From Eunapius fragilis (Eukaryota; Porifera; Demospongiae; Spongillida; Spongillidae), in the NCBI GenBank assembly GCA_963681505.1, contig OY811977.1, positions 654,001 to 718,000 on the forward strand: a DNA stretch of 64,000 bases. The letters are read 5' to 3'. Position 1 is the first letter of the stretch. Every line of letters starts with the position of its first letter. The notes under the pieces are model-generated. The model had not been told where the DNA came from and searched no databases. It saw only the letters and a list, made by a program, of their open reading frames with translations. The translations under genes and the position numbers were made by a program. Below, piece by piece: positions 19-44,448 of this stretch.

Positions 19-53
19 GTTTGGACCAATTGCTCCCAATTGCCCCCGCATTC
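19..53 (+). repeat. 35-bp deletion monomer, example of a recurrent marker class
   Basis: From one GTTTGGACC to the next is 35 bp instead of 52. The unit keeps X and most of the second X as ATTGCCCCCGCATTCG but lacks 17 bp, essentially one right-hand X' and part of the next. It recurs many times, nearly always after a unit with AATTCGGAGCAATTAG, for example near 182, 955, 3,470, 7,485, 12,890, 22,850, 40,350 and 55,555, and as its reverse complement in the minus blocks. It breaks the 52-bp register and is a useful bar code. Confidence 0.9.
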
Positions 54-14773: not shown

Positions 14774-16428
14774 GACCAATTGCTCCCAATTGCTCCCGCG
14801 GGAGCGATTCGGAGCAATTCGTTTGGACCAATTGCTCCCAATTGCTCCCGCGGGAGCGATTCGGAGCAATTCGTTTGGACCAATTGCTCCCAATAGCTCC
14901 CGCGGGAGCGATTGGGAGCAATTCGTTTGGACCAATTGCTATCAATTACTCCTGCGGGAGCGATTGGGAGCAATTCGTTTGGACCAATTGCTCCCAATTG
15001 CTCCCGCGTGAGCGAATCGAAGCAATTCGTTTGGACCAATTGCTCCCATTTGCTCCCGCGGGAGCGATTGGGAGCAATTCGTTTGGACCAACTGCTCCCA
15101 ATTGCTCCAGCGGGAGCGATTCGGAGCAATTCGTTTAGACCAATTGCTCCCAATTGCTCCCGCGGGAGCGATTGGGAGCAATTCGTATGGACCAATTGCT
15201 CCCAATTGCTCCCGCGGGAGCGATTGGGAGCAATTCGTATGGACCAATTGCTCCCAATTGCTCCCGCGGGAGCGATTGGGAGCAATTCGTTTGGACCAAT
15301 TGCTCCCAATTGCTCCCGCGGGAGCATTAGGAGCAATTTGTTTGGACCAATTGCTCCCAATTGCTCCCGCGGGAGCGATTGGGAGCAATTCGTTTGAACC
15401 AATTGCTCCCGTGGGAGCGATTGGGAGCAATTCGTTTGGACCAATTGCTCCCAATTGCTCCCGCGGGAGCGATTGGGAGCAATTCGTATGGACCAATTGC
15501 TCCCAATTGCTCCCGCGCGAGCAATTCGGAGCAATTAGTTTGGACCAATTGCTCCCAATTGCCCCCGCATTCGTTTGGACAAATTGCTCCCAATTGCTCC
15601 CGCGGGGGCGATTCGGAGCAATTCGCTTGGACCAACTGCTCCCAGATGCTCCCGCGGGAGCGATTCGGAGCAATTCGTTTGGACCAATTGCTCCCAATTG
15701 CTCCCGCGTGAGCGATTGGGAGCAATTCGTTTGGACCAATTGCTCCCAATTGCTCCCGCGGGAGTGATTGGGAGCAATTCATATGGACCAATTTCTCCCA
15801 ATTGCTCCCGCGGGAGCGATTAGGAGCAATTCGTTTGGACCAAATGCTCCCAATTGCTCCCGCGGGAGCGATTGGGAGCAATTCGTTTGGACCAATTGCT
15901 CCCAAATACTCCTGCGGGAGCGATTAGGAGCAATTCGTTTGGACCAATTGCTCCCAATTGCTCCCGCGGGAGCAATTCGGAGCAATTAGTTTGGACCAAT
16001 TGCTCCCAATTGCCCCCGCATTCATTTGGACCAATTGCTCCCAAGTGCTCCCGCGGGAGCGATTCGGAGCAATTCGTTTGGACCAATTGCTCCCAATTGC
16101 TCCCGAGAGAGCGATTCGGAGCAATTCGTTTGGACCAATTGATCCCAATTGCTCCCGCGGGAGCGATTCGGAGCAATTTGTTTGGACCAATTGCTCCCAA
16201 TAGCTGCCGCGGGAGCGATTGGGAGTAATTCGTTTGGACAAATTGCTATCAATTGCTCCCGCGGGAGCGATTGGGAGCAATTCGTTTGGACCAATTGCTC
16301 CCAATTGCTCCCGCGGGAGCGATTCGAAGCAATTCGTTTGGACCAATTGCTCCCAATTGCTCCCGCGGGAGCGATTGGGAGCAATTCGATTGGACCAATT
16401 GCTCCCAATTGCTCCCGCGGGAGCGATT

Positions 16429-16439
16429 CGGAGCAATTG
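16429..16439. other. orientation switch 1 (plus to minus)
   Basis: Plus-type sequence runs through the CCGCGG centre at 16,415-16,420 and the X'-like GGAGCAATT at 16,430-16,438, then continues as GGTCCAAACG, the reverse complement of Y. The breakpoint cannot be placed more finely because GGAGCAATT occurs before Y in plus units and before Y' in minus units. Around 16,417/16,418 the sequence forms an inverted repeat that runs from one array into the other. Confidence 0.9.
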
Positions 16440-19400
16440 GTCCAAACGAATTGCTCCCAATCGCTCCCGCAGGAGCAATTGGGGGCAATTGGTCTAAACG
16501 AATTGCTCCGAATCGCTCCCGCGGGAGCAATTGGGAGCAATTGGTCCAATCGAATTGCTCCCAATCGCTCCCGCGGGAGCAATTGGGAGCAATTGGTCCA
16601 AACGAATTGCTCCCAATCGCTCCCGCGGGAGCAATTGGGAGCAATTGGTCCAAACGAATTGCTCCCAATCGCTCCCGCGGGAGCAATTGGGAGCAATTGG
16701 TCCAAACGAATTGCTCCGAATCGCTCCCGCGGGAGCAATTGGGAGCAATTGGTCCAAGCGAATTGCTCCAAATCGTCCCCGAGGGAGCAATTGGGAGCAA
16801 TTTGTCCAAACGAATGCGGGGGCAATTGGGAGCAATTGGTCCAAACTAATTGCTCCGAATTGCTCCCGCGGGAGCAATTGGGAGCAATTGGTCCATACGA
16901 ATTGCTCCCAATCTCTCCCGCGGGAGCAATTGGGAGCAATTTGTCCAAACGAATAGCTCCCAATCGCTCCCACGGGAGCAATTGGTCCAAACGAATTGCT
17001 CCGAATCGCTCCCGCGGGAGCAATTGGGAGCAATTGGTCCATATGAATTGATCCCATTCGCTCTCGCGGGAGCAATTGGGAGCAATTGGTCCAAACGAAT
17101 TGCTCCCAATCGCTCCCGCGGGAGCAATTGGGAGCAATTGGTCCAAACGAATTGCTCCCAATTGCTCCCGCGGGACCAATTGGGAGCAATTGGTCCAAAC
17201 GAATTGCTCCCAATCGCTCCCGCGGGAGCAATTGGGAGCAATTGGTCCAAACGAATTGCTCCGAATCGCTCCCGCGGGAGCAATTGGGAGCATTTGGTCC
17301 AAGCGAATTGCTCTGAATCGCCCCCGCGGGAGCAATTGGGAGCAATTTGTCCGAACGAATGCGGGGGCAATTTGGAGCAATTGGTCCAAACTAATTGCTC
17401 CGAATTGGTCCCGCGGGAGCAATTGGGAGCAATTGGTCCATTCGAATTGCTCCCAATCGCTCCCGCGGGAGCAATTGGGAGCAATTGGTCCAAACGAATT
17501 GCTCCCAATCGCTCCCGCGGGAGCAATTGGGAACAATTGGTCCATATGAATTGCTCCCAATCGCTCCCGCGGGAGCAATTGGGAGCAATTGGTCCAAACG
17601 AATTGCTCCCAATCGCTCCAGCGGGAGCAATTGGGAGCAATTGGTCCAAACGAATTGCTCCCAATCGCTCCCGCGGGAGCAATTGGGAGCAATTGGTCCA
17701 GACGAATTGCTCCGAATCGCTCCCGCGGGAGCAATTGGGAGCAATTGGTCCAAACGAATTGCTCCCAATCGCTCCCGCGGGAGCAATTGGGAGCAATTGG
17801 TCCAAACGAATTGCTCCCAATCGCTCCCACGGGAGCACTTGGTCCAAACGAATTGCTCCGAATCGCTCCCGCGGGAGCAATTGGGAGCAATTGGTCCATA
17901 TGAATTGCTCCCATTCGCTCTCGCGGGAGCAATTGGGAGCAATTGGTCCAAACGAATTGCTCCCAATCGCTCCCGCGGGAGCAATTGGAGCAATTGGTCC
18001 AAACGAATTGCTCCCAATTGCTCCCGCGGGACCAATTGGGAGGAATTGGTCCAAACGAATTGCTCCCAATCGCTCCCGCGGGAGCAATTGGGATCAATTG
18101 GTCCAAACAAATTGATCCGAATCGCTCTCTCGGGAGCAATTGGGAGCAATTGGTCCAAACGAATTGCTCCGAATCGCTCCCACGGGAGCAATTGGGAGCA
18201 TATGGTCCAAACGAATTCCTCCGAATCGCTCCCGCGGGAGCAATTGGGAGCAATTGGCCCAAACGAATTGCTCGCAATCGGTCCCGCGGGAGCAAATGGG
18301 AGCAATTGGTCCAAACGAATTGCTTCGAATCGCTCCCGCGGGAGCAATTGGGAGCAATTGGTCTTAACGAATTGCTCCGAATCGCACCCGCGGGAGCAAT
18401 TGGGAGCAATTGGTCCTAACGAATTGCTCTGAATCGCTCCCGCGGGAGCAATTGGGAGCAATTGGTCCAAACTAAATGCTCCGAATTGCTCCCGCGGGAG
18501 CAATTGGGATCAATTGGTCAAAACGAATTGATCCGAATCGCTCTCTCGGGAGCAATTGGGAGCAATTGGTCCAAACGAATTGCTCCCAATCGCTCCCGCG
18601 GGAGCAATTGGGAGCAATTGGTCCAAACGAATTGCTCCGAATCGCTCCCGCGGGAGCAATTGGGAGCAATTGGTCCAAGCGAATTGCTCCAAATCGTCCC
18701 CGAGGGAGCAATTGGGAGCAATTTGTCCAAACGAATGCGGGGGCAATTGGGAGCAATTGGTCCAAACTAATTGCTCCGAATTGCTCCCGCGGGAGCAATT
18801 GGGAGCAATTGGTCCATACGAATTGCTCCCAATCTCTCCCGCGGGAGCAATTGGGAGCAATTTGTCCAAACGAATAGCTCCCAATCGCTCCCACGGGAGC
18901 AATTGGTCCAAACGAATTGCTCCGAATCGCTCCCGCGGGAGCAATTGGGAGCAATTGGTCCATATGAATTGATCCCATTCGCTCTCGCGGGAGCAATTGG
19001 GAGCAATTGGTCCAAACGAATTGCTCCCAATCGCTCCCGCGGGAGCAATTGGGAGCAATTGGTCCAAACGAATTGCTCCCAATTGCTCCCGCGGGACCAA
19101 TTGGGAGCAATTGGTCCAAACGAATTGCTCCCAATCGCTCCCGCGGGAGCAATTGGGAGCAATTGGTCCAAACGAATTGCTCCGAATCGCTCCCGCGGGA
19201 GCAATTGGGAGCATTTGGTCCAAGCGAATTGCTCTGAATCGCCCCCGCGGGAGCAATTGGGAGCAATTTGTCCGAACGAATGCGGGGGCAATTTGGAGCA
19301 ATTGGTCCAAACTAATTGCTCCGAATTGGTCCCGCGGGAGCAATTGGGAGCAATTGGTCCATTCGAATTGCTCCCAATCGCTCCCGCGGGAGCAATTGGG

Positions 19401-22400
19401 AGCAATTGGTCCAAACGAATTGCTCCCAATCGCTCCCGCGGGAGCAATTGGGAACAATTGGTCCATATGAATTGCTCCCAATCGCTCCCGCGGGAGCAAT
19501 TGGGAGCAATTGGTCCAAACGAATTGCTCCCAATCGCTCCAGCGGGAGCAATTGGGAGCAATTGGTCCAAACGAATTGCTCCCAATCGCTCCCGCGGGAG
19601 CAATTGGGAGCAATTGGTCCAGACGAATTGCTCCGAATCGCTCCCGCGGGAGCAATTGGGAGCAATTGGTCCAAACGAATTGCTCCCAATCGCTCCCGCG
19701 GGAGCAATTGGGAGCAATTGGTCCAAACGAATTGCTCCCAATCGCTCCCACGGGAGCACTTGGTCCAAACGAATTGCTCCGAATCGCTCCCGCGGGAGCA
19801 ATTGGGAGCAATTGGTCCATATGAATTGCTCCCATTCGCTCTCGCGGGAGCAATTGGGAGCAATTGGTCCAAACGAATTGCTCCCAATCGCTCCCGCGGG
19901 AGCAATTGGAGCAATTGGTCCAAACGAATTGCTCCCAATTGCTCCCGCGGGACCAATTGGGAGGAATTGGTCCAAACGAATTGCTCCCAATCGCTCCCGC
20001 GGGAGCAATTGGGATCAATTGGTCCAAACAAATTGATCCGAATCGCTCTCTCGGGAGCAATTGGGAGCAATTGGTCCAAACGAATTGCTCCGAATCGCTC
20101 CCACGGGAGCAATTGGGAGCATATGGTCCAAACGAATTCCTCCGAATCGCTCCCGCGGGAGCAATTGGGAGCAATTGGCCCAAACGAATTGCTCGCAATC
20201 GGTCCCGCGGGAGCAAATGGGAGCAATTGGTCCAAACGAATTGCTTCGAATCGCTCCCGCGGGAGCAATTGGGAGCAATTGGTCTTAACGAATTGCTCCG
20301 AATCGCACCCGCGGGAGCAATTGGGAGCAATTGGTCCTAACGAATTGCTCTGAATCGCTCCCGCGGGAGCAATTGGGAGCAATTGGTCCAAACTAAATGC
20401 TCCGAATTGCTCCCGCGGGAGCAATTGGGATCAATTGGTCAAAACGAATTGATCCGAATCGCTCTCTCGGGAGCAATTGGGAGCAATTGGTCCAAACGAA
20501 TTGCTCCCAATCGCTCCCGCGGGAGCAATTGGGAGCAATTGGTCCAAACGAATTGCTCCGAATCGCTCCCGCGGGAGCAATTGGGAGCAATTGGTCCATA
20601 TGAATTGCTCCCATTCGCTCTCGCGGGAGCAATTGGGAGCAATTGGTCCAAACGAATTGCTCCCAATCGCTCCCGCGGGAGCAATTGGGAGCAATTGGTC
20701 CAAACGAATTGCTCCCAATTGCTCCCGCGGGACCAATTGGGAGCAATTGGTCCAAACGAATTGCTCCCAATCGCTCCCGCGGGAGCAATTGGGAGCAATT
20801 GGTCCAAACGAATTGCTCCGAATCGCTCCCGCGGGAGCAATTGGGAGCATTTGGTCCAAGCGAATTGCTCCGAATCGCCCCCGCGGGAGCAATTGGGAGC
20901 AATTTGTCCGAACGAATGCGGGGGCAATTTGGAGCAATTGGTCCAAACTAATTGCTCCGAATTGGTCCCGCGGGAGCAATTGGGAGCAATTGGTCCATTC
21001 GAATTGCTCCCAATCGCTCCCGCGGGAGCAATTGGGAGCAATTGGTCCAAACGAATTGCTCCCAATCGCTCCCGCGGGAGCAATTGGGAACAATTGGTCC
21101 ATATGAATTGCTCCCAATCGCTCCCGCGGGAGCAATTGGGAGCAATTGGTCCAAACGAATTGCTCCCAATCGCTCCAGCGGGAGCAATTGGGAGCAATTG
21201 GTCCAAACGAATTGCTCCCAATCGCTCCCGCGGGAGCAATTGGGAGCAATTGGTCCAAACGAATTGCTCCCAATCGCTCCCACGGGAGCACTTGGTCCAA
21301 ACGAATTGCTCCGAATCGCTCCCGCGGGAGCAATTGGGAGCAATTGGTCCATATGAATTGCTCCCATTCGCTCTCGCGGGAGCAATTGGGAGCAATTGGT
21401 CCAAACGAATTGCTCCCAATCGCTCCCGCGGGAGCAATTGGAGCAATTGGTCCAAACGAATTGCTCCCAATTGCTCCCGCGGGACCAATTGGGAGGAATT
21501 GGTCCAAACGAATTGCTCCCAATCGCTCCCGCGGGAGCAATTGGGATCAATTGGTCCAAACAAATTGATCCGAATCGCTCTCTCGGGAGCAATTGGGAGC
21601 AATTGGCCCAAACGAATTGCTCGCAATCGGTCCCGCGGGAGCAAATGGGAGCAATTGGTCCAAACGAATTGCTTCGAATCGCTCCCGCGGGAGCAATTGG
21701 GAGCAATTGGTCTTAACGAATCGCTCCGAATCGCACCCGCGGGAGCAATTGGGAGCAATTGGTCCTAACGAATCGCTCCGAATCGCACCCGCGGGAGCAA
21801 TTGGGAGCAATTGGTCCTAACGAATTGCTCTGAATCGCTCCCGCGGGAGCAATTGGGAGCAATTGGTCCAAACTAATTGCTCCGAATTGCTCCCGCGGGA
21901 GCAATTGGGATCAATTGGTCCAAACGAATTGATCCGAATCGCTCTCTCGGGAGCAATTGGGAGCAATTGGTCCAATCGAATTGCTCCCAATCGCTCCCGC
22001 GGGAGCAATTGGGAGCAATTGGTCCAAACGAATTGCTTCGAATCGTCCCGCGGGAGCAATTGGGAGGATTTGGTCCAAACGAATTGCTCCCAATCGCTCC
22101 CGAAGGCGCAATTGGGAGCAAATGGTCCAAACGAATTGCTCCGAATCGCTCCCGCGGGAGCAATTGGGAGCAATTGGTCCAAACGAATTGCTCCCAATCG
22201 CTCCCGCAGGAGCAATTGGGAGCAAATGGTCCAAACGAATTGCTCCCAATCGCTCCCGCGGGAGCAATTGGGAGCAATTGGTCCAAACGAATTTCTCCCA
22301 ATCGCTCCCACGGGAGCAATTGGTCCACACGAATTGCTCTAATCGCTCCCGCGGGAGCAATTGGGAGGAATTGGTCCATGCGAATTGCTCCGAATCGACC

Positions 22401-22735
22401 CCGCGGGTGCAATTGGGAGCAATTTGTCCAAACGAATGCGGGGGCAATTGGGAGCAATTGGTCCAAACTAATTGCTCCGAATTGCTCCCGCGGGAGCAAT
22501 TGGGATCAATTGGTCCAAACGAATTGCTCCGAATCGCTCTCTCGGGAGCAATTGGGAGCAATCGGTCCAAACAAATTGCTCCCAATCGCTCCCGCGGGAG
22601 CAATTGGGATCAATTGGTCCAAACGAATTGCTCCGAATCGCTCTCTCGGGAGCAATTGGGAGCAATCGGTCCAAACAAATTGCTCCCAATCGCTCCCGCG
22701 GGAGCAATTGGGAGCAATTGGTCCAAACGAATTGC
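16435..22735 (-). repeat. 52-bp satellite array, inverted block A
   Basis: The same 52-bp unit in opposite orientation: Y now reads GGTCCAAACG on the plus strand, once per monomer throughout. About 120 monomers. The block carries reverse complements of variants seen in the plus blocks, including the 35-bp deletion monomer (GAATGCGGGGGCAATT at about 16,813, 17,356 and 18,734), so it comes from the same family and is not a separate satellite. It contains a 1,921-bp tandem duplication. No gene is visible. Confidence 0.95.
16680..20590 (-). repeat. 1,921-bp tandem duplication inside inverted block A
   Basis: Marker variants at about 16,846-18,503 recur at 18,767-20,424 with an offset of 1,921 bp (about 37 monomers). 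The bases compared agree closely, for example the GGACCAATTGGGAGGAATTG segment at about 18,030 and 19,950. A partial third copy with rearranged order continues to about 21.8 kb. Confidence 0.82.
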
Positions 22736-22741
22736 TCCCAA
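22730..22741. other. orientation switch 2 (minus to plus)
   Basis: A minus-type GGTCCAAACG at 22,720-22,729 is followed by AATTGCTCCCAA (22,730-22,741), shared by both orientations, and then by plus-type AATGCTCCTGCGGGAGCG and CGTTTGGACC. The 62 bp from 22,720 to 22,781 form a palindrome with 27 of 31 pairs matched. The plus-side variant with CTCCTGCGGGAG also occurs in ordinary plus units (about 3,360), so the join used an existing plus monomer. Confidence 0.9.
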
Positions 22742-25700
22742 ATGCTCCTGCGGGAGCGATTAGGAGCAATTCGTTTGGACCAATTGCTCCCCATTGCTCC
22801 CGCGGGAGCAATTCGGAGCAATTAGTTTGGACCAATTGCTCCCAATTGCCCCCGCATTCGTTTGGACCAATTGCTCCCAATTGCTCCCGCGGGAGTGATT
22901 CGGAGCAATTCGTTTGGACCAATTGCTCCCAATTGCTCCCGAGAGAGCGATTCGGAGCAATTCGTTTGGACCAATTGATCCCAATTGCTCCCGCGGCAGC
23001 GATTCGGAGCAATTCGTTTGGACCAATTGCTCCCAATAGCTGCCGCGGGAGCGATTGGGAGTAATTCGTTTGGACAAATTGCTATCAATTGCTCCCGCGG
23101 GAGCGATTGGGAGCAATTCGTTTGGACCAATTGCTCCCAATTGCTCCCGCGGGAGTGATTCGAAGCAATTCGTTTGGACCAATTGCTCCGAATTGCTCCC
23201 GCGGGAGCGATTGGGAGCAATTCGATAGGACCAATTGCTCCCAATTGCTCCCGCGGGAGCGATTCGGAGCAATTCGTTTAGACCAATTGCTCCCAATTGC
23301 TCCCGCGGGAGCGATTGGGAGCAATTCGTTTGGACCAATTGCTCCCAATTGCTCCCGCGGGAGCGATTGGGAGCAATTCGTATGGGCCAATTGCTCCCAA
23401 TTGCTCCCGCGGGAGCGATTGGGAGCAATTCGTTTGGACCAATTGCTCCCAATTGCTCCCGCGGGAGCATTAGGAGCAATTTGTTTGGACCAATTGCTCC
23501 CAATTGCTCCCGCGGGAGCGATTGGGAGCAATTCGTTTGAACCAATTGCTCCCGTGGGAGCGATTGGGAGCAATTCGTTTGGACCAATTGCTCCCAATTG
23601 CTCCCGCGGGAGCGATTGGGAGCAATTCGTATGGACCAAATGCTCCCAATTGCTTCCGCGCGAGCAATTCGGAGCAATTAGTTTGGACCAATTGCTCCCA
23701 ATTGCCCCCGCATTCGTTTGGACAAATTGCTGCCAATTGCTCCCGCGGGGGCGATTCGGAGCAATTCGCTTGGACCAACTGCTCCCAGATGCTCCCGCGG
23801 GAGCGATTCGGAGCAATTCGTTTGGACCAATTGCTCCCAATTGCTCCCGCGGGAGCGATTGGGAGCAATTCGTTTGGACCAATTGCTCCCAATTGCTCCC
23901 GCGGGAGTGATTGGGAGCAATTCATATGGACCAATTTCTCCCAATTGCTCCCGCGGGAGCGATTAGGAGCAATTCGTTTGGACCAATTGCTCCCAATTGC
24001 TCCCGCGGGAGCGATTGGGAGCAATTCGTTTGGACCAATTGCTCCCAAATGCTCCTGCGGGAGCGATTAGGAGCAATTCGTTTGGACCAATTGCTCCCAA
24101 TTGCTCCCGCGGGAGCAATTCGGAGCAATTAGTTTGGACCAATTGCTCCCAATTGCCCCCGCATTCGTTTGGACCAATTGCTCCCAATTGCTCCCGCGGG
24201 AGCGATTCGGAGCAATTGGTTTGGACCAATTGCTCCCATTTGCTCCCGCGGGAGCGATTGGGAGCAATTCGTTTGGACCAATTGCTCCCAATTGCTCCCG
24301 CGGGAGCGATTCTGAGCAATTCGTTTGGACCAATTGCTCCCAATTGCTCCCGCGGGAGCGATTCGGAGCAATTCGTTTGGACCAATTGCTCCCAATAGCT
24401 CCCGCGGGAGCGATTGGGAGCAATCCGTTTGGACCAATTGCTATCAATTGCTCCTGCGGGAGCGATTGGGAGCAATTCGTATGGACCAATTGCTCCCATT
24501 TGCTCCCGCGGGAGCGATTGGGAGCAATTCGTTTGCTACGAATTGCTCCCGCGGGAGCGATTGGGAGCAATTCGTTTGCACCAATTGCTCCCAATTGCTC
24601 CCGCGGGAGCATTAGGAGGAATTTGTTTGGACCAATTGCTCCCAATTGCTCGATTCGGAGCAATTCGCTTGGACCAACTGCTCCCAAATGCTCCCGCAGG
24701 AGCGATTCGGAGCAATTCGTTTGGACCAATTGCTCCCAATTGCTCCCGCGGGAGCGATTGGGAGCAATTCGTTTGGACCAATTGCTCCCAATTGCTCCCG
24801 CGGGAGTGATTGGGAGCAATTCATATGGACCAATTTCTCCCACTTGCTCCCGCGGGAGCGATTAGGAGCAATTTGTTTGGACCAATTGCTCCCAATTGCT
24901 CCCGCGGGAGCGATTGGGAGCAATTCGTTTGGACCAATTGCTCCCAAATGCTCCTGCGGGAGCGATTAGGAGCAATTCGTTTGGACCAATTGCTCCCAAT
25001 TGCTCCCGCGGGAGCAATTCGGAGCAATTAGTTTGGACCAATTGCTCCCAATTGCCCCCGCATTCGTTTGGACCAATTGCTCCCAATTGCTCCCGCGGGA
25101 GCGATTCGGAGCAATTCGTTTGGACCAATTGCTCCCATTTGCTCCCGCGGGAGCGATTGGGAGCAATTCGTTTGGACCAATTGCTCCCAATTGCTCCCGC
25201 CGGAGCGATTCGGAGCAATTCGTTTGGACCAATTGCTCCCAATTGCTCCCGCGGGAGCGATTCGGAGCAATTCGTTTGGACCAATTGCTCCCAATAGCTC
25301 CCGCGGGAGCGATTGGGAGCAATTCGTTTGGACCAATTGCTATCAATTGCTCCTGCGGGAGCGATTGGGAGCAATTCGTTTGGACCAATTGCTCCCAATT
25401 GCTCCCGCGTGAGCGAATCGAAGCAATTCGTTTGGACCAATTGCTCCCAATTGCTCCCGCGGTAGCGATTGGGAGCAATTCGTTTGGACCAACTGCTCCC
25501 AATTGCTCCTGCGGGAGCGATTCGGAGCAATTCGTTTAGACCAATTGCTCCCAATTGCTCCCGCGGGAGCGATTGGGAGCAATTCGTTTAGACCAATTGC
25601 TCCCAATTGCTCCCGCTGGAGCGATTGGGAGCAATTCGTATGGACCAATTGCTCCCATTTGCTCCCGCGGGAGCGATTGGGAGCAATTCGTTTGCTCCCA

Positions 25701-28700
25701 ATTGCTCCCGCGGGAGCGATTGGGAGCAATTCGTTTGCACCAATTGCTCCCAATTGCTCCCGCGGGAGCATTAGGAGGAATTTGTTTGGACCAATTGCTC
25801 CCAATTGCTCGATTAGGAGCAATTCGCTTGGACCAATTGCACCCAATTGCTCCCGCGGGAGCAATTCGGAGCAATTAGTTTGGACCAATTGCTCCCAATT
25901 GCTCCCGCGGGAACGATTCAGAGCAATTCGTTAGGACCAATTGCTCCCAATTGCTCCCGCGGGTGCGATTCGGAGCAATTAGTTTAGACCAATCGTTTGG
26001 GCCAATTGCTCCCAATTGCTCCTGCGGGAGCGTTTCGGAGGAATTCGTTTGGACCATATGCTCCCAATTGCTCCCGCGGGAGCGATTGGGAGCAATTCGT
26101 TTGGACCAATTGCTCCCAATTGCCCCCGCATTCGTTTGGACAAATTGCTCCCAATTGCTCCCGCGGGGGCGATTCGGAGCAATTCGCTTGGACCAATTGC
26201 TCCCACGGGAGCGATTCGGAGCAATTCGTTTGGACCAATTGCTCCCAATTGCTCCCGCGGGAACGATTTGGTGCAATTCGTTTGGACCAATTGCTCCCAA
26301 TTGCTCCCGCGGGAGGAGCAATTCGTTTGGACCAATTGCTCCCAATTGCTCCCGCGGGAGCGATTGGGGCGCAATTCGTTTCGACCAATTGCTCCCAATT
26401 GCTCCCGCGGGAGCGATTAGGAGCAATTCGTTTGGACCAATTGCTCCCAATTGCTCCCGCGGGAGCAATTCGGAGCAATTAGTTTGGACCAATTGCTCCC
26501 AATTGCCCCCGCATTCGTTTGGACCAATTGCTCCCAATTGCTCCCGCGGGAGCGATTCGGAGCAATTCGTTTGGACCAATTGCTCCCAATTGCTCCCTCG
26601 GGAGCAATTCGGAGGAATTAGTTTGGACCAATTGCTCCGAATTGCCCCCGCATTCGTTTGGACCAATCGCTCCCAATTGATCCCGCGGGAGCGATTGGGA
26701 GCAATTCGTTTGGACCAATTGCTCCCATTTGCTCCCGCGGGAGCGATTGGGAGCAATTCGTTTGCTCCCAATTGCTCCCGCGGGAGCGATTGGGAGCAAT
26801 TCGTTTGCACCAATTGCTCCCAATTGCTCCCGCGGGAGCATTAGGAGGAATTTGTTTGGACCAATTGCTCCCAATTGCTCGATTAGGAGCAATTCGCTTG
26901 GACCAATTGCACCCAATTGCTCCCGCGGGAGCAATTCGGAGCAATTAGTTTGGACCAATTGCTCCCAATTGCTCCCGCGGGAACGATTCAGAGCAATTCG
27001 TTAGGACCAATTGCTCCCAATTGCTCCCGCGGGTGCGATTCGGAGCAATTAGTTTAGACCAATCGTTTGGGCCAATTGCTCCCAATTGCTCCTGCGGGAG
27101 CGTTTCGGAGGAATTCGTTTGGACCATATGCTCCCAATTGCTCCCGCGGGAGCGATTGGGAGCAATTCGTTTGGACCAATTGCTCCCAATTGCCCCCGCA
27201 TTCGTTTAGACAAATTGCTCCCAATTGCTCCCGCGGGGGCGATTCGGAGCAATTCGCTTGGACCAATTGCTCCCAATTGCTCCCGCGGGAGCGATTGGGA
27301 GCAATTCGTTTGGACCAATTGCTCCCAATTGCTCCCGCGGGAGCGATTGGGAGCAATTCGTTTGGACCAATTGCGCCCAATTGCTCCCGCGGGAGCGATT
27401 AGGAGCAATTCGTTTGGACCAATTGCTCCCAATTGCTCCCGCGGGAGCAATTCGGAGCAATTAGTTTAGACCAATTGCTCCCAATTGTCCCCGCATTCGT
27501 TTGGACCAATTGCTCCCAATTGCTCCCGCGGGAGCGATTCGGAGCAATTTGTTTGGACCAATTGCTCCCAATTGCTCCCGCAGGAGCGATTGGGAGCAAT
27601 TCGTTTGGACCAATTGCTCCCAATTTCTCCCGCGGGACGATTCGAAGCAATTCGTTTGGACCAATTGCTCCCAATTGCTCCCGCGAGAGCGATTCGGAGC
27701 AATTCGTTTGTACCAATTGATCCCATTTGCTCCCGCGGGAGCAATTGGGAGCAATTCGTTTGGACCAATTGCTCCCAATTGCTCCCGAGAGAGCGATTCG
27801 GAGCAATTCGTTTGGACCAATTGATCCCGCGCGAGCGATTCGGAGCAATTCGTTTGGACCAAATGCTCCCGTGGGAGCGATTGGGAGCAATTCGTTTCGA
27901 CAAATTGCTCCCAATTGCTCCAGCGGGAGCGATTGGGAGCATTTCGTATGGACCAATTGCTCCCAATTGCTCCCGCGGGAGCAATTCGGAGCAATTAGTT
28001 TGGACCAATTGCTCCCAATTGCCCCCGCATTCGTTAGGACCAATGGCTCCCAGTTGCTCCCGCGGGAGCGATTGGGAGCAATTCGTTTGGACCAATTGCT
28101 CCCAATTGCTCCCGCGGGAGCGATTGGGAGCAATTCGTTTGGACCAATTGCTCCCAATTGCTCCCGCGGGAGCGATTAGGAGCAATTCGCTTGGACCAAT
28201 TGCACCCAATTGCTCCCGCGGGAGCAATTCGGAGCAATTCGTTTGGACCAATTGCTCCCAATAGCTGCCGCGGGAGCGATTGGGAGTGATTCGTTTGGAC
28301 AAATTGCTATCAATTGCTCCCGCGGGAGCGATTGGGAGCAATTCGTTTGGACCAATTGCTCCCAATTGCTCCCGCGGGAGCGATTCGAAGCAATTCGTTT
28401 GGACCAATTGCTCCCAATTGCTCCCGCGGGAGCGATTGGGAGCAATTCGATTGGACCAATTGCTCCCAATTGCTCCCGCGGGTGCGATTCGGAGCAATTA
28501 GTTTAGACCAATCGTTTGGGCCAATTGCTCCCAATTGCTCCTGCGGGAGCGTTTCGGAGGAATTCGTTTGGACCATATGCTCCCAATTGCTCCCGCGGGA
28601 GCGATTGGGAGCAATTCGTTTGGACCAATTGCTCCCGATTGCCCCCGCATTCGTTTGGACAAATTGCTCCCAATTGCTCCCGCGGGGGCGATTCGGAGCA

Positions 28701-34300: not shown

Positions 34301-34313
34301 TGCTCCCGCGGGA
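34288..34313. other. orientation switch 3 (plus to minus)
   Basis: The shared stretch is X-X-GC-GGGA (26 bp). To its left is a plus-type TTGGACC; to its right is CCAATTGGGAGCAATT and then GGTCCAAACG, a minus-type monomer variant also seen near 17,165. The 96 bp from 34,261 to 34,356 form an inverted repeat with no spacer and only two mismatched pairs. The switch point differs from switch 1 although the blocks to the right are copies. Confidence 0.88.
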
Positions 34314-37300
34314 CCAATTGGGAGCAATTGGTCCAAACGAATTGCTCCCAATCGCTCCCGCGGGAGCAATTGGGAGCAATTGGTCCAAACTAATTGCTCC
34401 GAATTGCTCCCGCGGGAGCAATTGGGAGCAATTGGTCCATACGAATTGCTCCCAATCTCTCCCGCGGGAGCAATTGGGAGCAATTTGTCCAAACGAATTG
34501 CTCCCAATCGCTCCCACGGGAGCAATTGGTCCAAACGAATTGCTCCGAATCGCTCCCGCGGGAGCAATTGGGAGCAATTGGTCCATATGAATTGATCCCA
34601 TTCGCTCTCGCGGGAGCAATTGGGAGCAATTGGTCCAAACGAATTGCTCCCAATCGCTCCCGCGGGAGCAATTGGGAGCAATTGGTCCAAACGAATTGCT
34701 CCCAATTGCTCCCGCGGGACCAATTGGGAGCAATTGGTCCAAACGAATTGCTCCCAATCGCTCCCGCGGGAGCAATTGGGAGCAATTGGTCCAAACGAAT
34801 TGCTCCGAATCGCTCCCGCGGGAGCAATTGGGAGCATTTGGTCCAAGCGAATTGCTCCGAATCGCCCCCGCGGGAGCAATTGGGAGCAATTTGTCCGAAC
34901 GAATGCGGGGGCAATTTGGAGCAATTGGTCCAAACTAATTGCTCCGAATTGGTCCCGCGGGAGCAATTGGGAGCAATTGGTCCATTCGAATTGCTCCCAA
35001 TCGCTCCCGCGGGAGCAATTGGGAGCAATTGGTCCAAACGAATTGCTCCCAATCGCTCCCGCGGGAGCAATTGGGAACAATTGGTCCATATGAATTGCTC
35101 CCAATCGCTCCCGCGGGAGCAATTGGGAGCAATTGGTCCAAACGAATTGCTCCCAATCGCTCCAGCGGGAGCAATTGGGAGCAATTGGTCCAAACGAATT
35201 GCTCCCAATCGCTCCCGCGGGAGCAATTGGGAGCAATTGGTCCAGACGAATTGCTCCGAATCGCTCCCGCGGGAGCAATTGGGAGCAATTGGTCCAAACG
35301 AATTGCTCCCAATCGCTCCCGCGGGAGCAATTGGGAGCAATTGGTCCAAACGAATTGCTCCCAATCGGTCCCACGGGAGCACTTGGTCCAAACGAATTGC
35401 TCCGAATCGCTCCCGCGGGAGCAATTGGGAGCAATTGGTCCATATGAATTGCTCCCATTCGCTCTCGCGGGAGCAATTGGGAGCAATTGGTCCAAACGAA
35501 TTGCTCCCAATCGCTCCCGCGGGAGCAATTGGAGCAATTGGTCCAAACGAATTGCTCCCAATTGCTCCCGCGGGACCAATTGGGAGGAATTGGTCCAAAC
35601 GAATTGCTCCCAATCGCTCCCGCGGGAGCAATTGGGATCAATTGGTCCAAACAAATTGATCCGAATCGCTCTCTCGGGAGCAATTGGGAGCAATTGGTCC
35701 AAACGAATTGCTCCGAATCGCTCCCACGGGAGCAATTGGGAGCATATGGTCCAAACGAATTCCTCCGAATCGCTCCCGCGGGAGCAATTGGGAGCAATTG
35801 GCCCAAACGAATTGCTCGCAATCGGTCCCGCGGGAGCAAATGGGAGCAATTGGTCCAAACGAATTGCTTCGAATCGCTCCCGCGGGAGCAATTGGGAGCA
35901 ATTGGTCTTAACGAATTGCTCCGAATCGCACCCGCGGGAGCAATTGGGAGCAATTGGTCCTAACGAATTGCTCTGAATCGCTCCCGCGGGAGCAATTGGG
36001 AGCAATTGGTCCAAACTAATTGCTCCGAATTGCTCCCGCGGGAGCAATTGGGATCAATTGGTCAAAACGAATTGATCCGAATCGCTCTCTCGGGAGCAAT
36101 TGGGAGCAATTGGTCCAAACGAATTGCTCCCAATCGCTCCCGCGGGAGCAATTGGGAGCAATTGGTCCAAACGAATTGCTCCGAATCGCTCCCGCGGGAG
36201 CAATTGGGAGCAATTGGTCCATATGAATTGCTCCCATTCGCTCTCGCGGGAGCAATTGGGAGCAATTGGTCCAAACGAATTGCTCCCAATCGCTCCCGCG
36301 GGAGCAATTGGGAGCAATTGGTCCAAACGAATTGCTCCCAATTGCTCCCGCGGGACCAATTGGGAGCAATTGGTCCAAACGAATTGCTCCCAATCGCTCC
36401 CGCGGGAGCAATTGGGAGCAATTGGTCCAAACGAATTGCTCCGAATCGCTCCCGCGGGAGCAATTGGGAGCATTTGGTCCAAGCGAATTGCTCCGAATCG
36501 CCCCCGCGGGAGCAATTGGGAGCAATTTGTCCGAACGAATGCGGGGGCAATTTGGAGCAATTGGTCCAAACTAATTGCTCCGAATTGGTCCCGCGGGAGC
36601 AATTGGGAGCAATTGGTCCATTCGAATTGCTCCCAATCGCTCCCGCGGGAGCAATTGGGAGCAATTGGTCCAAACGAATTGCTCCCAATCGCTCCCGCGG
36701 GAGCAATTGGGAACAATTGGTCCATATGAATTGCTCCCAATCGCTCCCGCGGGAGCAATTGGGAGCAATTGGTCCAAACGAATTGCTCCCAATCGCTCCA
36801 GCGGGAGCAATTGGGAGCAATTGGTCCAAACGAATTGCTCCCAATCGCTCCCGCGGGAGCAATTGGGAGCAATTGGTCCAAACGAATTGCTCCCAATCGC
36901 TCCCACGGGAGCACTTGGTCCAAACGAATTGCTCCGAATCGCTCCCGCGGGAGCAATTGGGAGCAATTGGTCCATATGAATTGCTCCCATTCGCTCTCGC
37001 GGGAGCAATTGGGAGCAATTGGTCCAAACGAATTGCTCCCAATCGCTCCCACGGGAGCACTTGGTCCAAACGAATTGCTCCGAATCGCTCCCGCGGGAGC
37101 AATTGGGAGCAATTGGTCCATATGAATTGCTCCCATTCGCTCTCGCGGGAGCAATTGGGAGCAATTGGTCCAAACGAATTGCTCCCAATCGCTCCCGCGG
37201 GAGCAATTGGAGCAATTGGTCCAAACGAATTGCTCCCAATTGCTCCCGCGGGACCAATTGGGAGGAATTGGTCCAAACGAATTGCTCCCAATCGCTCCCG

Positions 37301-40234
37301 CGGGAGCAATTGGGATCAATTGGTCCAAACAAATTGATCCGAATCGCTCTCTCGGGAGCAATTGGGAGCAATTGGTCCAAACGAATTGCTCCGAATCGCT
37401 CCCACGGGAGCAATTGGGAGCATATGGTCCAAACGAATTCCTCCGAATCGCTCCCGCGGGAGCAATTGGGAGCAATTGGCCCAAACGAATTGCTCGCAAT
37501 CGGTCCCGCGGGAGCAAATGGGAGCAATTGGTCCAAACGAATTGCTTCGAATCGCTCCCGCGGGAGCAATTGGGAGCAATTGGTCTTAACGAATTGCTCC
37601 GAATCGCACCCGCGGGAGCAATTGGGAGCAATTGGTCCTAACGAATTGCTCTGAATCGCTCCCGCGGGAGCAATTGGGAGCAATTGGTCCAAACTAATTG
37701 CTCCGAATTGCTCCCGCGGGAGCAATTGGGATCAATTGGTCAAAACGAATTGATCCGAATCGCTCTCTCGGGAGCAATTGGGAGCAATTGGTCCAAACGA
37801 ATTGCTCCCAATCGCTCCCGCGGGAGCAATTGGGAGCAATTGGTCCAAACGAATTGCTCCGAATCGCTCCCGCGGGAGCAATTGGGAGCAATTGGTCCAT
37901 ATGAATTGCTCCCATTCGCTCTCGCGGGAGCAATTGGGAGCAATTGGTCCAAACGAATTGCTCCCAATCGCTCCCGCGGGAGCAATTGGGAGCAATTGGT
38001 CCAAACGAATTGCTCCCAATTGCTCCCGCGGGACCAATTGGGAGCAATTGGTCCAAACGAATTGCTCCCAATCGCTCCCGCGGGAGCAATTGGGAGCAAT
38101 TGGTCCAAACGAATTGCTCCGAATCGCTCCCGCGGGAGCAATTGGGAGCATTTGGTCCAAGCGAATTGCTCCGAATCGCCCCCGCGGGAGCAATTGGGAG
38201 CAATTTGTCCGAACGAATGCGGGGGCAATTTGGAGCAATTGGTCCAAACTAATTGCTCCGAATTGGTCCCGCGGGAGCAATTGGGAGCAATTGGTCCATT
38301 CGAATTGCTCCCAATCGCTCCCGCGGGAGCAATTGGGAGCAATTGGTCCAAACGAATTGCTCCCAATCGCTCCCGCGGGAGCAATTGGGAACAATTGGTC
38401 CATATGAATTGCTCCCAATCGCTCCCGCGGGAGCAATTGGGAGCAATTGGTCCAAACGAATTGCTCCCAATCGCTCCAGCGGGAGCAATTGGGAGCAATT
38501 GGTCCAAACGAATTGCTCCCAATCGCTCCCGCGGGAGCAATTGGGAGCAATTGGTCCAAACGAATTGCTCCCAATCGCTCCCACGGGAGCACTTGGTCCA
38601 AACGAATTGCTCCGAATCGCTCCCGCGGGAGCAATTGGGAGCAATTGGTCCATATGAATTGCTCCCATTCGCTCTCGCGGGAGCAATTGGGAGCAATTGG
38701 TCCAAACGAATTGCTCCCAATCGCTCCCACGGGAGCACTTGGTCCAAACGAATTGCTCCGAATCGCTCCCGCGGGAGCAATTGGGAGCAATTGGTCCATA
38801 TGAATTGCTCCCATTCGCTCTCGCGGGAGCAATTGGGAGCAATTGGTCCAAACGAATTGCTCCCAATCGCTCCCGCGGGAGCAATTGGAGCAATTGGTCC
38901 AAACGAATTGCTCCCAATTGCTCCCGCGGGACCAATTGGGAGGAATTGGTCCAAACGAATTGCTCCCAATCGCTCCCGCGGGAGCAATTGGGATCAATTG
39001 GTCCAAACAAATTGATCCGAATCGCTCTCTCGGGAGCAATTGGGAGCAATTGGTCCAAACGAATTGCTCCGAATCGCTCCCACGGGAGCAATTGGGAGCA
39101 TATGGTCCAAACGAATTCCTCCAAATCGCTCCCGCGGGAGCAATTGGGAGCAATTGGCCCAAACGAATTGCTCGCAATCGGTCCCGCGGGAGCAAATGGG
39201 AGCAATTGGTCCAAACGAATTGCTTCGAATCGCTCCCGCGGGAGCAATTGGGAGCAATTGGTCTTAACGAATCGCTCCGAATCGCACCCGCGGGAGCAAT
39301 TGGGAGCAATTGGTCCTAACGAATTGCTCTGAATCGCTCCCGCGGGAGCAATTGGGAGCAATTGGTCCAAACTAATTGCTCCGAATTGCTCCCGCGGGAG
39401 CAATTGGGATCAATTGGTCCAAACGAATTGATCCGAATCGCTCTCTCGGGAGCAATTGGGAGCAATTGGTCCAATCGAATTGCTCCCAATCGCTCCCGCG
39501 GGAGCAATTGGGAGCAATTGGTCCAAACGAATTGCTTCGAATCGTCCCGCGGGAGCAATTGGGAGGATTTGGTCCAAACGAATTGCTCCCAATCGCTCCC
39601 GAAGGAGCAATTGGGAGCAAATGGTCCAAACGAATTGCTCCGAATCGCTCCCGCGGGAGCAATTGGGAGCAATTGGTCCAAACGAATTGCTCCCAAACGC
39701 TCCCGCAGGAGCAATTGGGAGCAAATGGTCCAAACGAATTGCTCCCAATCGCTCCCGCGGGAGCAATTGGGAGCAATTGGTCCAAACGAATTTCTCCCAA
39801 TCGCTCCCACGGGAGCAATTGGTCCACACGAATTGCTCTAATCGCTCCCGCGGGAGCAATTGGGAGGAATTGGTCCATGCGAATTGCTCCGAATCGACCC
39901 CGCGGGTGCAATTGGGAGCAATTTGTCCAAACGAATGCGGGGGCAATTGGGAGCAATTGGTCCAAACTAATTGCTCCGAATTGCTCCCGCGGGAGCAATT
40001 GGGATCAATTGGTCCAAACGAATTGCTCCGAATCGCTCTCTCGGGAGCAACTGGGAGCAATCGGTCCAAACAAATTGCTCCCAATCGCTCCCGCGGGAGC
40101 AATTGGGATGAATTGGTCCAAACGAATTGCTCTGAATCGCTCTCTCGGGAGCAATTGGGAGCAATCGGTCCAAACAAATTGCTCCCAATCGCTCCCGCGG
40201 GAGCAATTGGGAGCAATTGGTCCAAACGAATTGC
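34301..40234 (-). repeat. 52-bp satellite array, inverted block B
   Basis: Minus-oriented block (GGTCCAAACG on the plus strand), about 114 monomers. From about 34,390 it follows inverted block A at an offset of 17,544 bp, and 17,499 bp near its right end, so it is a copy of block A. Its left breakpoint is different from that of A; its right junction is the same. It has its own 1,678-bp tandem duplication. No gene is visible. Confidence 0.95.
36000..39360 (-). repeat. 1,678-bp tandem duplication inside inverted block B
   Basis: Markers at about 36,006-37,337 recur at 37,684-39,015 with an offset of 1,678 bp. Inverted block A has a 1,921-bp unit at the related position, so the two homologous blocks expanded differently after they were copied. 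Confidence 0.82.
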
Positions 40235-40240
40235 TCCCAA
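40229..40240. other. orientation switch 4 (minus to plus), copy of switch 2
   Basis: Same join as at 22,730: GGTCCAAACG, AATTGCTCCCAA, then AATGCTCCTGCGGGAGCG. The offset of 17,499 bp equals that of the flanking sequence on both sides, so this junction was copied and did not arise a second time. Confidence 0.9.
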
Positions 40241-42394
40241 ATGCTCCTGCGGGAGCGATTAGGAGCAATTCGTTTGGACCAATTGCTCCCCATTGCTCCC
40301 GCGGGAGCAATTCGGAGCAATTAGTTTGGACCAATTGCTCCCAATTGCCCCCGCATTCGTTTGGACCAATTGCTCCCAATTGCTCCCGCGGGAGCGATTC
40401 GGAGCAATTCGTTTGGACCAATTGCTCCCAATTGCTCCCGAGAGAGCGATTCGGAGCAATTCGTTTGGACCAATTGATCCCAATTGCTCCCGCGGCAGCG
40501 ATTCGGAGCAATTCGTTTGGACCAATTGCTCCCAATAGCTGCCGCGGGAGCGATTGGGAGTAATTCGTTTGGACAAATTGCTATCAATTGCTCCCGCGGG
40601 AGCGATTGGGAGCAATTCGTTTGGACCAATTGCTCCCAATTGCTCCCGCGGGAGTGATTCGAAGCAATTCGTTTGGACCAATTGCTCCGAATTGCTCCCG
40701 CGGGAGCGATTGGGAGCAATTCGATTGGACCAATTGCTCCCAATTGCTCCCGCGGGAGCGATTCGGAGCAATTCGTTTAGACCAATTGCTCCCAATTGCT
40801 CCCGCGGGAGCGATTGGGAGCAATTCGTTTGGACCAATTGCTCCCAATTGCTCCCGCGGGAGCGATTGGGAGCAATTCGTATGGGCCAATTGCTCCCAAT
40901 TGCTCCCGCGGGAGCGATTGGGAGCAATTCGTTTGGACCAATTGCTCCCAATTGCTCCCGCGGGAGCATTAGGAGCAATTTGTTTGGACCAATTGCTCCC
41001 AATTGCTCCCGCGGGAGCGATTGGGAGCAATTCGTTTGAACCAATTGCTCCCGTGGGAGCGATTGGGAGCAATTCGTTTGGACCAATTGCTCCCAATTGC
41101 TCCCGCGGGAGCGATTGGGAGCAATTCGTATGGACCAAATGCTCCCAATTGCTTCCGCGCGAGCAATTCGGAGCAATTAGTTTGGACCAATTGCTCCCAA
41201 TTGCCCCCGCATTCGTTTGGACAAATTGCTGCCAATTGCTCCCGCGGGGGCGATTCGGAGCAATTCGCTTGGACCAACTGCTCCCAGATGCTCCCGCGGG
41301 AGCGATTCGGAGCAATTCGTTTGGACCAATTGCTCCCAATTGCTCCCGCGGGAGCGATTGGGAGCAATTCGTTTGGACCAATTGCTCCCAATTGCTCCCG
41401 CGGGAGTGATTGGGAGCAATTCATATGGACCAATTTCTCCCAATTGCTCCCGCGGGAGCGATTAGGAGCAATTCGTTTGGACCAATTGCTCCCAATTGCT
41501 CCCGCGGGAGCGATTGGGAGCAATTCGTTTGGACCAATTGCTCCCAAATGCTCCTGCGGGAGCGATTAGGAGCAATTCGTTTGGACCAATTGCTCCCAAT
41601 TGCTCCCGCGGGAGCAATTCGGAGCAATTAGTTTGGACCAATTGCTCCCAATTGCCCCCGCATTCGTTTGGACCAATTGCTCCCAATTGCTCCCGCGGGA
41701 GCGATTCGGCGCAATTGGTTTGGACCAATTGCTCCCATTTGCTCCCGCGGGAGCGATTGGGAGCAATTCGTTTGGACCAATTGCTCCCAATTGCTCCCGC
41801 GGGAGCGATTCTGAGCAATTCGTTTGGACCAATTGCTCCCAATTGCTCCCGCGGGAGCGATTCGGAGCAATTCGTTTGGACCAATTGCTCCCAATAGCTC
41901 CCGCGGGAGCGATTGGGAGCAATCCGTTTGGACCAATTGCTATCAATTGCTCCTGCGGGAGCGATTGGGAGCAATTCGTATGGACCAATTGCTCCCATTT
42001 GCTCCCGCGGGAGCGATTGGGAGCAATTCGTTTGCTCCGAATTGCTCCCGCGGGAGCGATTGGGAGCAATTCGTTTGCACCAATTGCTCCCAATTGCTCC
42101 CGCGGGAGCATTAGGAGGAATTTGTTTGGACCAATTGCTCCCAATTGCTCGATTCGGAGCAATTCGCTTGGACCAACTGCTCCCAAATGCTCCCGCAGGA
42201 GCGATTCGGAGCAATTCGTTTGGACCAATTGCTCCCAATTGCTCCCGCGGGAGCGATTGGGAGCAATTCGTTTGGACCAATTGCTCCCAATTGCTCCCGC
42301 GGGAGTGATTGGGAGCAATTCATATGGACCAATTTCTCCCATTTGCTCCCGCGGGAGCGATTAGGAGCAATTCGTTTGGACCAATTGCTCCCAA
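40235..42394 (+). repeat. 52-bp satellite array, plus-oriented block 3
   Basis: Short plus-oriented block of about 41 monomers between inverted blocks B and C. It matches 22,736 to about 24,900 at an offset of 17,499 bp. Most of it is repeated again at about 44.44-46.5 kb at offsets of 4,156 and then 4,104 bp. No gene is visible. Confidence 0.94.
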
Positions 42395-42397
42395 TTG
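42392..42397. other. orientation switch 5 (plus to minus), CAATTG microhomology
   Basis: Plus-type TTGGACCAATTGCTCC leads into CAATTG (42,392-42,397) and then minus-type GTCCTAACGAATTGCTCT. The six shared bases are self-complementary. No other junction in the window has this structure, and the left side is a plus monomer cut after its first X. Confidence 0.88.
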
Positions 42398-44442
42398 GTC
42401 CTAACGAATTGCTCTGAATCGCTCCCGCGGGAGCAATTGGGAGCAATTGGTCCAAACTAATTGCTCCGAATTGCTCCCGCGGGAGCAATTGGGATCAATT
42501 GGTCAAAACGAATTGATCCGAATCGCTCTCTCGGGAGCAATTGGGAGCAATTGGTCCAAACGAATTGCTCCCAATCGCTCCCGCGGGAGCAATTGGGAGC
42601 AATTGGTCCAAACGAATTGCTCCGAATCGCTCCCGCGGGAGCAATTGGGAGCAATTGGTCCATATGAATTGCTCCCATTCGCTCTCGCGGGAGCAATTGG
42701 GAGCAATTGGTCCAAACGAATTGCTCCCAATCGCTCCCGCGGGAGCAATTGGGAGCAATTGGTCCAAACGAATTGCTCCCAATCGCTCCCACGGGAGCAC
42801 TTGGTCCAAACGAATTGCTCCGAATCGCTCCCGCGGGAGCAATTGGGAGCAATTGGTCCATATGAATTGCTCCCATTCGCTCTCGCGGGAGCAATTGGGA
42901 GCAATTGGTCCAAACGAATTGCTCCCAATCGCTCCCACGGGAGCACTTGGTCCAAACGAATTGCTCCGAATCGCTCCCGCGGGAGCAATTGGGAGCAATT
43001 GGTCCATATGAATTGCTCCCATTCGCTCTCGCGGGAGCAATTGGGAGCAATTGGTCCAAACGAATTGCTCCCAATCGCTCCCGCGGGAGCAATTGGAGCA
43101 ATTGGTCCAAACGAATTGCTCCCAATTGCTCCCGCGGGACCAATTGGGAGGAATTGGTCCAAACGAATTGCTCCCAATCGCTCCCGCGGGAGCAATTGGG
43201 ATCAATTGGTCCAAACAAATTGATCCGAATCGCTCTCTCGGGAGCAATTGGGAGCAATTGGTCCAAACGAATTGCTCCGAATCGCTCCCACGGGAGCAAT
43301 TGGGAGCATATGGTCCAAACGAATTCCTCCAAATCGCTCCCGCGGGAGCAATTGGGAGCAATTGGCCCAAACGAATTGCTCGCAATCGGTCCCGCGGGAG
43401 CAAATGGGAGCAATTGGTCCAAACGAATTGCTTCGAATCGCTCCCGCGGGAGCAATTGGGAGCAATTGGTCTTAACGAATCGCTCCGAATCGCACCCGCG
43501 GGAGCAATTGGGAGCAATTGGTCCTAACGAATTGCTCTGAATCGCTCCCGCGGGAGCAATTGGGAGCAATTGGTCCAAACTAATTGCTCCGAATTGCTCC
43601 CGCGGGAGCAATTGGGATCAATTGGTCCAAACGAATTGATCCGAATCGCTCTCTCGGGAGCAATTGGGAGCAATTGGTCCAATCGAATTGCTCCCAATCG
43701 CTCCCGCGGGAGCAATTGGGAGCAATTGGTCCAAACGAATTGCTTCGAATCGTCCCGCGGGAGCAATTGGGAGGATTTGGTCCAAACGAATTGCTCCCAA
43801 TCGCTCCCGAAGGAGCAATTGGGAGCAAATGGTCCAAACGAATTGCTCCGAATCGCTCCCGCGGGAGCAATTGGGAGCAATTGGTCCAAACGAATTGCTC
43901 CCAAACGCTCCCGCAGGAGCAATTGGGAGCAAATGGTCCAAACGAATTGCTCCCAATCGCTCCCGCGGGAGCAATTGGGAGCAATTGGTCCAAACGAATT
44001 TCTCCCAATCGCTCCCACGGGAGCAATTGGTCCACACGAATTGCTCTAATCGCTCCCGCGGGAGCAATTGGGAGGAATTGGTCCATGCGAATTGCTCCGA
44101 ATCGACCCCGCGGGTGCAATTGGGAGCAATTTGTCCAAACGAATGCGGGGGCAATTGGGAGCAATTGGTCCAAACTAATTGCTCCGAATTGCTCCCGCGG
44201 GAGCAATTGGGATCAATTGGTCCAAACGAATTGCTCCGAATCGCTCTCTCGGGAGCAATTGGGAGCAATCGGTCCAAACAAATTGCTCCCAATCGCTCCC
44301 GCGGGAGCAATTGGGATCAATTGGTCCAAACGAATTGCTCCGAATCGCTCTCTCGGGAGCAATTGGGAGCAATCGGTCCAAACAAATTGCTCCCAATCGC
44401 TCCCGCGGGAGCAATTGGGAGCAATTGGTCCAAACGAATTGC
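42395..44442 (-). repeat. 52-bp satellite array, inverted block C
   Basis: Smallest minus-oriented block, about 39 monomers. Its left part corresponds to block B from about 37,634 (offset 4,763 bp) and its right part to block B from about 38,700 to 40,234 (offset 4,208 bp), so roughly 555 bp are missing relative to B. Its right junction is identical to those of A and B. Its left junction is private to this block. Confidence 0.93.
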
Positions 44443-44448
44443 TCCCAA
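44437..44448. other. orientation switch 6 (minus to plus), copy of switch 2
   Basis: Same join as at 22,730 and 40,229 (AATTGCTCCCAA followed by AATGCTCCTGCGGGAGCG). The offsets are 21,707 and 4,208 bp, matching those of the surrounding sequence. Confidence 0.9.

What the first reader, a model, noticed from the sequence alone, without database searches (positions are those of the whole stretch)
16429..44448. Six orientation switches, each inside sequence shared by both orientations
Direction, read from Y, changes at 16,429-16,439, 22,730-22,741, 34,288-34,313, 40,229-40,240, 42,392-42,397 and 44,437-44,448. Each break falls in X, X' or CAATTG, which both orientations contain because the unit is palindromic. 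I infer that the palindrome itself allows turn-around, by template switching at a hairpin, cruciform resolution or microhomology repair.
Basis: partly seen in the sequence, partly recalled or inferred. Interest (0 to 1): 0.75.

Follow-up and report, generated by a model that had tools for sequence, protein, structure and literature searches.

The report
One inverted satellite block, repeatedly copied
A long stretch of a palindromic repeated DNA unit changes direction six times, but most of those turns are copies of the same two older turns spread by ordinary duplication, so the repeat does not seem to turn itself around often.

Summary
An orientation HMM finds exactly six switches at the stated places in a 60-kb array of a 52-bp palindromic satellite.

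They are not six events. J2, J4 and J6 are one R-to-F junction in three copies (4-8 mismatches in about 2 kb). J3 is a copy of J1: its left flank matches only J1's left flank collinearly (99.8% over 1 kb, two units missing), and its R side was replaced. J5 is the joint of a tandem duplication of about 4-5 kb whose ends lay in opposite blocks. One inverted block plus direct duplication and deletion explains all six.

Frequent turn-around is contradicted: 0 inverted against 178 direct pairs at 97% or more over 300 bp, and 0 of 1,095 recognisable Y tags is flipped. "Breaks fall in X/X'" is uninformative (p about 0.28).

One part of the interpretation survives. Junctions share 6-26 bp, reached by only 0.15-3.9% of simulated random joins, and J1-J3 keep the 52-bp phase. 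The palindrome probably guided rare exchanges, as homology that reads alike in both orientations. How the first inverted block formed is unresolved: my register test was not significant.

The parts
50..60228 (.). 52-bp palindromic satellite array; 42-bp core AATTGCTCCCAATTGCTCCCGCGGGAGCGATTGGGAGCAATT plus 10-bp asymmetric tag Y
   Evidence: TRF period 52, 1200 copies; 40 of 42 core positions of the consensus self-complementary
16429..16439 (.). J1, F-to-R junction, in phase (centre spacing 52), 12-bp overlap between F-type and R-type sequence
16440..22729 (-). R block 1, with an internal 1921-bp tandem duplication (about 16816-18736 to 18737-20657)
22729..22748 (.). J2, R-to-F junction, in phase, 13-bp overlap
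34289..34328 (.). J3, F-to-R junction at the palindrome (34308.5) that corresponds to the last F palindrome of J1 (16417.5); in phase, 26-bp overlap; two upstream units missing
34328..40228 (-). R block 2, a copy of R block 1 (34360-37937 against 18737-22323, 97.2%), with an internal 1678-bp duplication
40228..40247 (.). J4, copy of J2 at lag 17499
   Evidence: 8 mismatches in 2001 bp across the junction; 261-bp exact match through it
42391..42399 (.). J5, F-to-R joint of a tandem duplication; out of phase (centre spacing 76), 6-bp overlap CAATTG
   Evidence: F side 42088-42397 identical to 46192-46501 (310 bp), R side 42392-42783 identical to 37629-38020 and to 35951-36342 (392 bp)
42399..44436 (-). 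R block 3, second copy of the end of R block 2 (37629-40235 against 42392-44443: 26 mismatches in 2052 aligned bases, 555 bp in gaps)
44436..44455 (.). J6, copy of J2 and J4 (697-bp exact match with J2; one 52-bp unit missing downstream)
9410..26340 (+). segment containing J1 and J2, present again at about 26652-47943 with insertions and deletions (tandem duplication of about 17 kb)
   Evidence: lags 17242, 17087, 17995, 17499 and 21603

Best explanation
The window holds a satellite array that originally ran one way and acquired one inverted block (R) bounded by one F-to-R and one R-to-F junction. Later events were all in direct orientation. (1) A tandem duplication of about 17 kb copied both junctions (J1, J2 to J3, J4). 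(2) A deletion or exchange at the copied J1 joined the same last F palindrome to another R unit (J3). (3) A tandem duplication of about 4-5 kb that contained J4 gave J6 as a copy and J5 as the joint of the duplication. The palindromic core reads nearly the same in both orientations, so an F unit and an R unit share up to 32-33 identical bases in direct alignment. That lets rare exchanges between opposite blocks land in the core and keep the unit phase. It does not turn the array around often. Shown: the six switches, the copy relations, the overlaps, the absence of recent inverted copies. Inferred: the order of events, and that the core's homology guided J1, J2 and J3. Likely but untested: that the first R block arose by one inversion between two palindromic units rather than by inverted copying.
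For: J2/J4/J6: 8 of 2001, 6 of 1949 and 4 of 1949 mismatches over stretches spanning the junction, with exact matches of 697 and 261 bp through it. J3/J1: the 1000 bp before 34165 match the J1 flank at 99.8% with a 104-bp shift, whereas the three other places tested that carry the same 148-149-bp piece match at 62-64%; R block 2 follows as a copy of R block 1 and ends in J4. J5: exact flanks of 310 and 392 bp at the two ends of a tandem duplication, the F parts of which differ by 3 of 2059 bases. No flipped unit among 1,095 recognisable tags; direct against inverted HSPs 178:0 (at least 300 bp, 97%) and 89:0 (at least 1000 bp, 96%), although F-R pairs make up 36% of pairs of places. Overlaps 12, 13, 26 and 6 bp at J1, J2, J3 and J5; under the same rule 0.8%, 1.1%, 0.15% and 3.9% of 1,372 random joins per direction do as well. 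Centre spacing 52 at J1, J2, J3. Longest exact direct F-R match 32-33 bp away from junctions.
Against: My test for a plain inversion failed to decide. Re-joining the R sequence of J1 to the F sequence of J2 gives the best match in the array only if one unit is skipped (rank 1 of 115; the actual place ranks 39), and 29 of 150 random F positions choose the same R places. On the J1 side the actual place ranks 110 of 115. A tree of 133 segments (33 R) does not put R in one clade: at least 11 changes are needed and well-supported branches force 4; the rows mix positions of the higher-order repeat, so this does not cleanly test a single origin. The R-side parent of J5 has two equally exact candidates. 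If J1 and J2 come from one inversion, their phase and their overlap are not independent.
Confidence: 0.75

Rival explanations
1. One reading: the palindrome itself makes the array turn around (hairpin template switch or cruciform resolution), each switch a separate event.
For: The core forms a strong hairpin and all breaks lie in the palindromic part.
Against: Copy relations of J2/J4/J6, J1/J3 and J5; no flipped unit among 1,095 tags and no inverted copy of 97% or more over 300 bp.
Confidence: 0.06
2. The first R block came from inverted copying (fold-back or template switching) rather than from inversion, followed by the same direct duplications.
For: A 520-bp F piece ends at J1 and is found again at the start of F after J2 (15912-16431 against 22748-23267, 98.3%), as flanking duplication by template switching would give. 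R next to J1 is 95-96% like the reverse complement of F copies, including F about 0.5 kb left of J1.
Against: If copied, the inverted twin should be as similar as the 520-bp direct pair; it is not (95.4% against 98.3%). Both halves of the 520-bp piece have other copies of 96-99% in the array.
Confidence: 0.25
3. Some junctions are assembly joins between separate arrays of opposite direction.
For: No reads could be examined; satellite arrays are prone to misassembly.
Against: J2 occurs three times with copies that differ by a few substitutions and a unit deletion, and R is a distinct sequence, not flipped F (best inverted HSP of at least 300 bp 96.5%). This protects J2 better than J1, J3 or J5, each of which occurs once.
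Confidence: 0.12

Closest known systems
Tribolium madens satellites TmSat1/TmSat2 with macro-dyad symmetries (PMC13081366; abstract, section 7 part 1 of 2 and the whole discussion seen)
   Same: Satellite arrays made of oppositely oriented sub-arrays; inversion sites that recur as near-identical copies (2044 INV_1a sequences 98.9% similar, 3486 INV_1b 98.2%); the authors note that the preservation could reflect the way these segments are spread and exchanged.
   Different: There the monomers are about 110-704 bp and one subunit at the TmSat1 inversion site is degenerate; here the unit is a 52-bp near-perfect palindrome, the junction units are normal in length except J5, and no conserved special subunit is seen. 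Sequences were not compared.
Inversions inside alpha-satellite arrays of primates (PMC11062924 and PMC9549924; passages seen)
   Same: Blocks of reversed monomers inside otherwise one-way arrays. PMC9549924 calls the inversion in human centromere 1 the single such event in live centromeres, in line with rarity.
   Different: Alpha-satellite monomers are not near-perfect palindromes (recalled), so F and R units there do not share a core in direct alignment; the orangutan inversion is 3.2 Mb, the blocks here 2-6 kb.

Membership tests
Satellite array with macro-dyad symmetry (Tribolium type) | Multi-kilobase sub-arrays of one satellite in opposite orientation | tested here: met
   Three R blocks of about 6.3, 5.9 and 2.0 kb inside F
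Satellite array with macro-dyad symmetry (Tribolium type) | Inversion sites conserved in many copies | tested here: met
   J2 in three copies, J1 in two; small number, one window
Satellite array with macro-dyad symmetry (Tribolium type) | Direct and inverted sub-arrays of about equal length | tested here: not met
   76% forward in the window; only 60 kb seen
Satellite array with macro-dyad symmetry (Tribolium type) | Verified on raw long reads | not testable with these tools
   No reads and no host genome held
CENP-B-binding centromeric satellite | CENP-B box (core TTCGnnnnAnnCGGG, recalled) | tested here: not met
   0 core matches on either strand; 0 full-box matches with up to 3 mismatches

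The most novel reading that the evidence does not exclude
Because each unit is a palindrome, ordinary direct unequal exchange can take place between units of opposite orientation, so an orientation boundary can be moved or re-made without any inversion. J3 would be a caught example: the same last F palindrome as J1 joined, in phase and over 26 identical bases, to a different R unit. The short length of identity available in direct F-R alignment (32-33 bp at most away from the junctions) would then set how rare this is.
Probability: 0.4. Interest if true: 0.5.

Novelty: new member of a known kind. Interest (0 to 1): 0.35.

Why it matters
It shows how a count of orientation switches in a satellite can be misleading: six junctions reduce to one inverted block plus direct duplications. 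It also makes a specific idea testable in complete arrays, namely that palindromic monomers let direct exchange cross orientation boundaries while homogenisation stays within one orientation.

Tried and rejected
Counting breaks in X/X' against Y: rejected as a test, since 42/52 gives 0.28 for 6 of 6.

Register test for a plain inversion: rank 1 of 115 one unit away from the actual place looked good, but 29 of 150 random F positions pick the same two R places, so I do not use it as evidence; the J1 side ranks 110 of 115.

Tree of 133 segments: R is not one clade, but rows mix positions of the higher-order repeat; no conclusion drawn.

Simple overlap simulation: replaced, which treats random and real joins by the same rule.

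I first took the units shared by J1 and J3 as rare variants. One search shows they are not (the 76-bp string occurs 8 times forward and 3 times reversed), so the J1/J3 link rests on 1 kb of collinear flank.

Host: no genome held; the unit has no exact match in viral contigs or genome contigs, and the 185-bp satellite none in viral contigs (not tried in genome contigs). Paper searches for a 52-bp satellite (one hit, on Merlin transposons, only listed), a 185-bp satellite (none) and palindromic satellite (four listed, judged unrelated from titles and abstracts) did not name it. Rfam on 58000-64000: no match. These are limited phrase searches in an open-access library, so I do not claim that the satellite is unpublished.

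The middle of the output was cut; I use only rows that I saw.

Full report
What is there. Window 50-60228 is an array of a 52-bp unit, followed from 60230 by a 185-bp satellite. Each unit has a 42-bp core, 40 of whose 42 positions are self-complementary in the consensus, and a 10-bp asymmetric tag Y. No host genome is held and the organism is not identified.

Observation. A profile HMM with both orientations finds six switches and no more, at J1 16429-16439, J2 22729-22748, J3 34289-34328, J4 40228-40247, J5 42391-42399 and J6 44436-44455. Inside the blocks 1,095 Y tags agree with their block and 0 disagree, at up to one mismatch.

The junctions are not independent. Self-comparison shows long direct duplications: 5407 bp, about 17.2-17.5 kb, 4208 bp, and 1921 and 1678 bp inside R. 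J2, J4 and J6 lie in corresponding places of these copies: stretches of about 2 kb spanning them differ by 8 of 2001, 6 of 1949 and 4 of 1949 bases, with one 52-bp unit missing in the J6 copy. J3 and J1: 34021-34173 is identical to 16026-16178, and 34165-34313 to 16274-16422. The last piece also occurs at 1272, 56503 and (148 bp) 28335, but the 1000 bp before it match only the J1 flank (99.8% with a 104-bp shift, against 62-64% at the three others). So J3 ends at the same F palindrome as J1. Its R side corresponds to 16816 or 18737 onwards instead. J5: the 310 bp on its left equal 46192-46501 and the 392 bp on its right equal 37629-38020 and 35951-36342. With the 4208-bp duplication this is the joint between two tandem copies of an R-F segment; the F parts of the two copies differ by 3 of 2059 bases and the R parts by 26 of 2052, with gaps of 555 bp.

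Is turn-around frequent? With seeds of 48 bp, direct HSPs number 178 at 97% or more over at least 300 bp and 89 at 96% or more over at least 1000 bp; inverted HSPs number 0 in both classes, although 36% of pairs of places are F-R. HSPs overlap and share history, so these are not independent counts. At 95% over 300 bp the numbers are 1047 direct and 421 inverted. Recent duplication and homogenisation in this window are therefore confined to one orientation. This excludes a recent inverted duplication. It does not date a conservative inversion, which leaves no twin.

Did homology guide the joins? Under one rule applied to real and random joins, overlaps between F-type and R-type sequence are 12 bp (J1), 13 (J2), 26 (J3) and 6 (J5); 0.8%, 1.1%, 0.15% and 3.9% of 1,372 random joins of the same direction reach these. 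Distances between palindrome centres are 52 across J1, J2 and J3 and 76 across J5. If J1 and J2 are the two ends of one inversion, they count once for phase. Away from junctions the longest exact direct match between F and R is 32-33 bp. I infer that the core, which reads alike in both orientations, supplied this homology, and that its short length keeps such events rare.

Origin of the first R block. I could not settle it. The in-register test favours a place one unit from the actual break on the J2 side but is matched by 29 of 150 random F positions, and fails on the J1 side. A 520-bp F piece stands on both sides of R block 1 at 98.3%, which fits template switching, but the inverted twin expected next to J1 is only about 95% similar. 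A mixed tree does not make R one clade.

Comparison. Satellite arrays with opposite sub-arrays and recurrent inversion sites are described for Tribolium (PMC13081366), whose authors state that such macro-dyads are so far documented only in that genus; inversions inside alpha-satellite arrays are described for primates (PMC11062924, PMC9549924; passages seen). The present array is a further case with a palindromic unit. The search that came closest to the exchange idea returned one ape-genome paper, seen only in the listing.

Verdict. Real and correctly located, but mostly copies. Interest moderate to low as six switches; somewhat higher for J3 as a possible case of direct exchange between units of opposite orientation.

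Noticed in passing
60229-60230: Abrupt change from the 52-bp array to a 185-bp satellite, with no intervening sequence.
   Followed up: partly
60230-64000: The 185-bp satellite runs one way (20 forward and 0 reverse hits with a 30-bp probe), and carries a short dyad CTCCCATAGAAATGTATGGGAG at 19 regular places; 6 exact copies recur at 1109 bp, suggesting a six-unit higher-order repeat.
   Followed up: partly
50-60228: Recurrent shortened units: 17 bases of the right arm missing (79 in F, 11 in R) and 10 bases missing across core positions 24-33 (36 in F, 16 in R); both kinds occur in both orientations.
   Followed up: partly
3847-9522 and 9254-14929: Very recent 5407-bp tandem duplication, 99.77% identical.
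   Followed up: no
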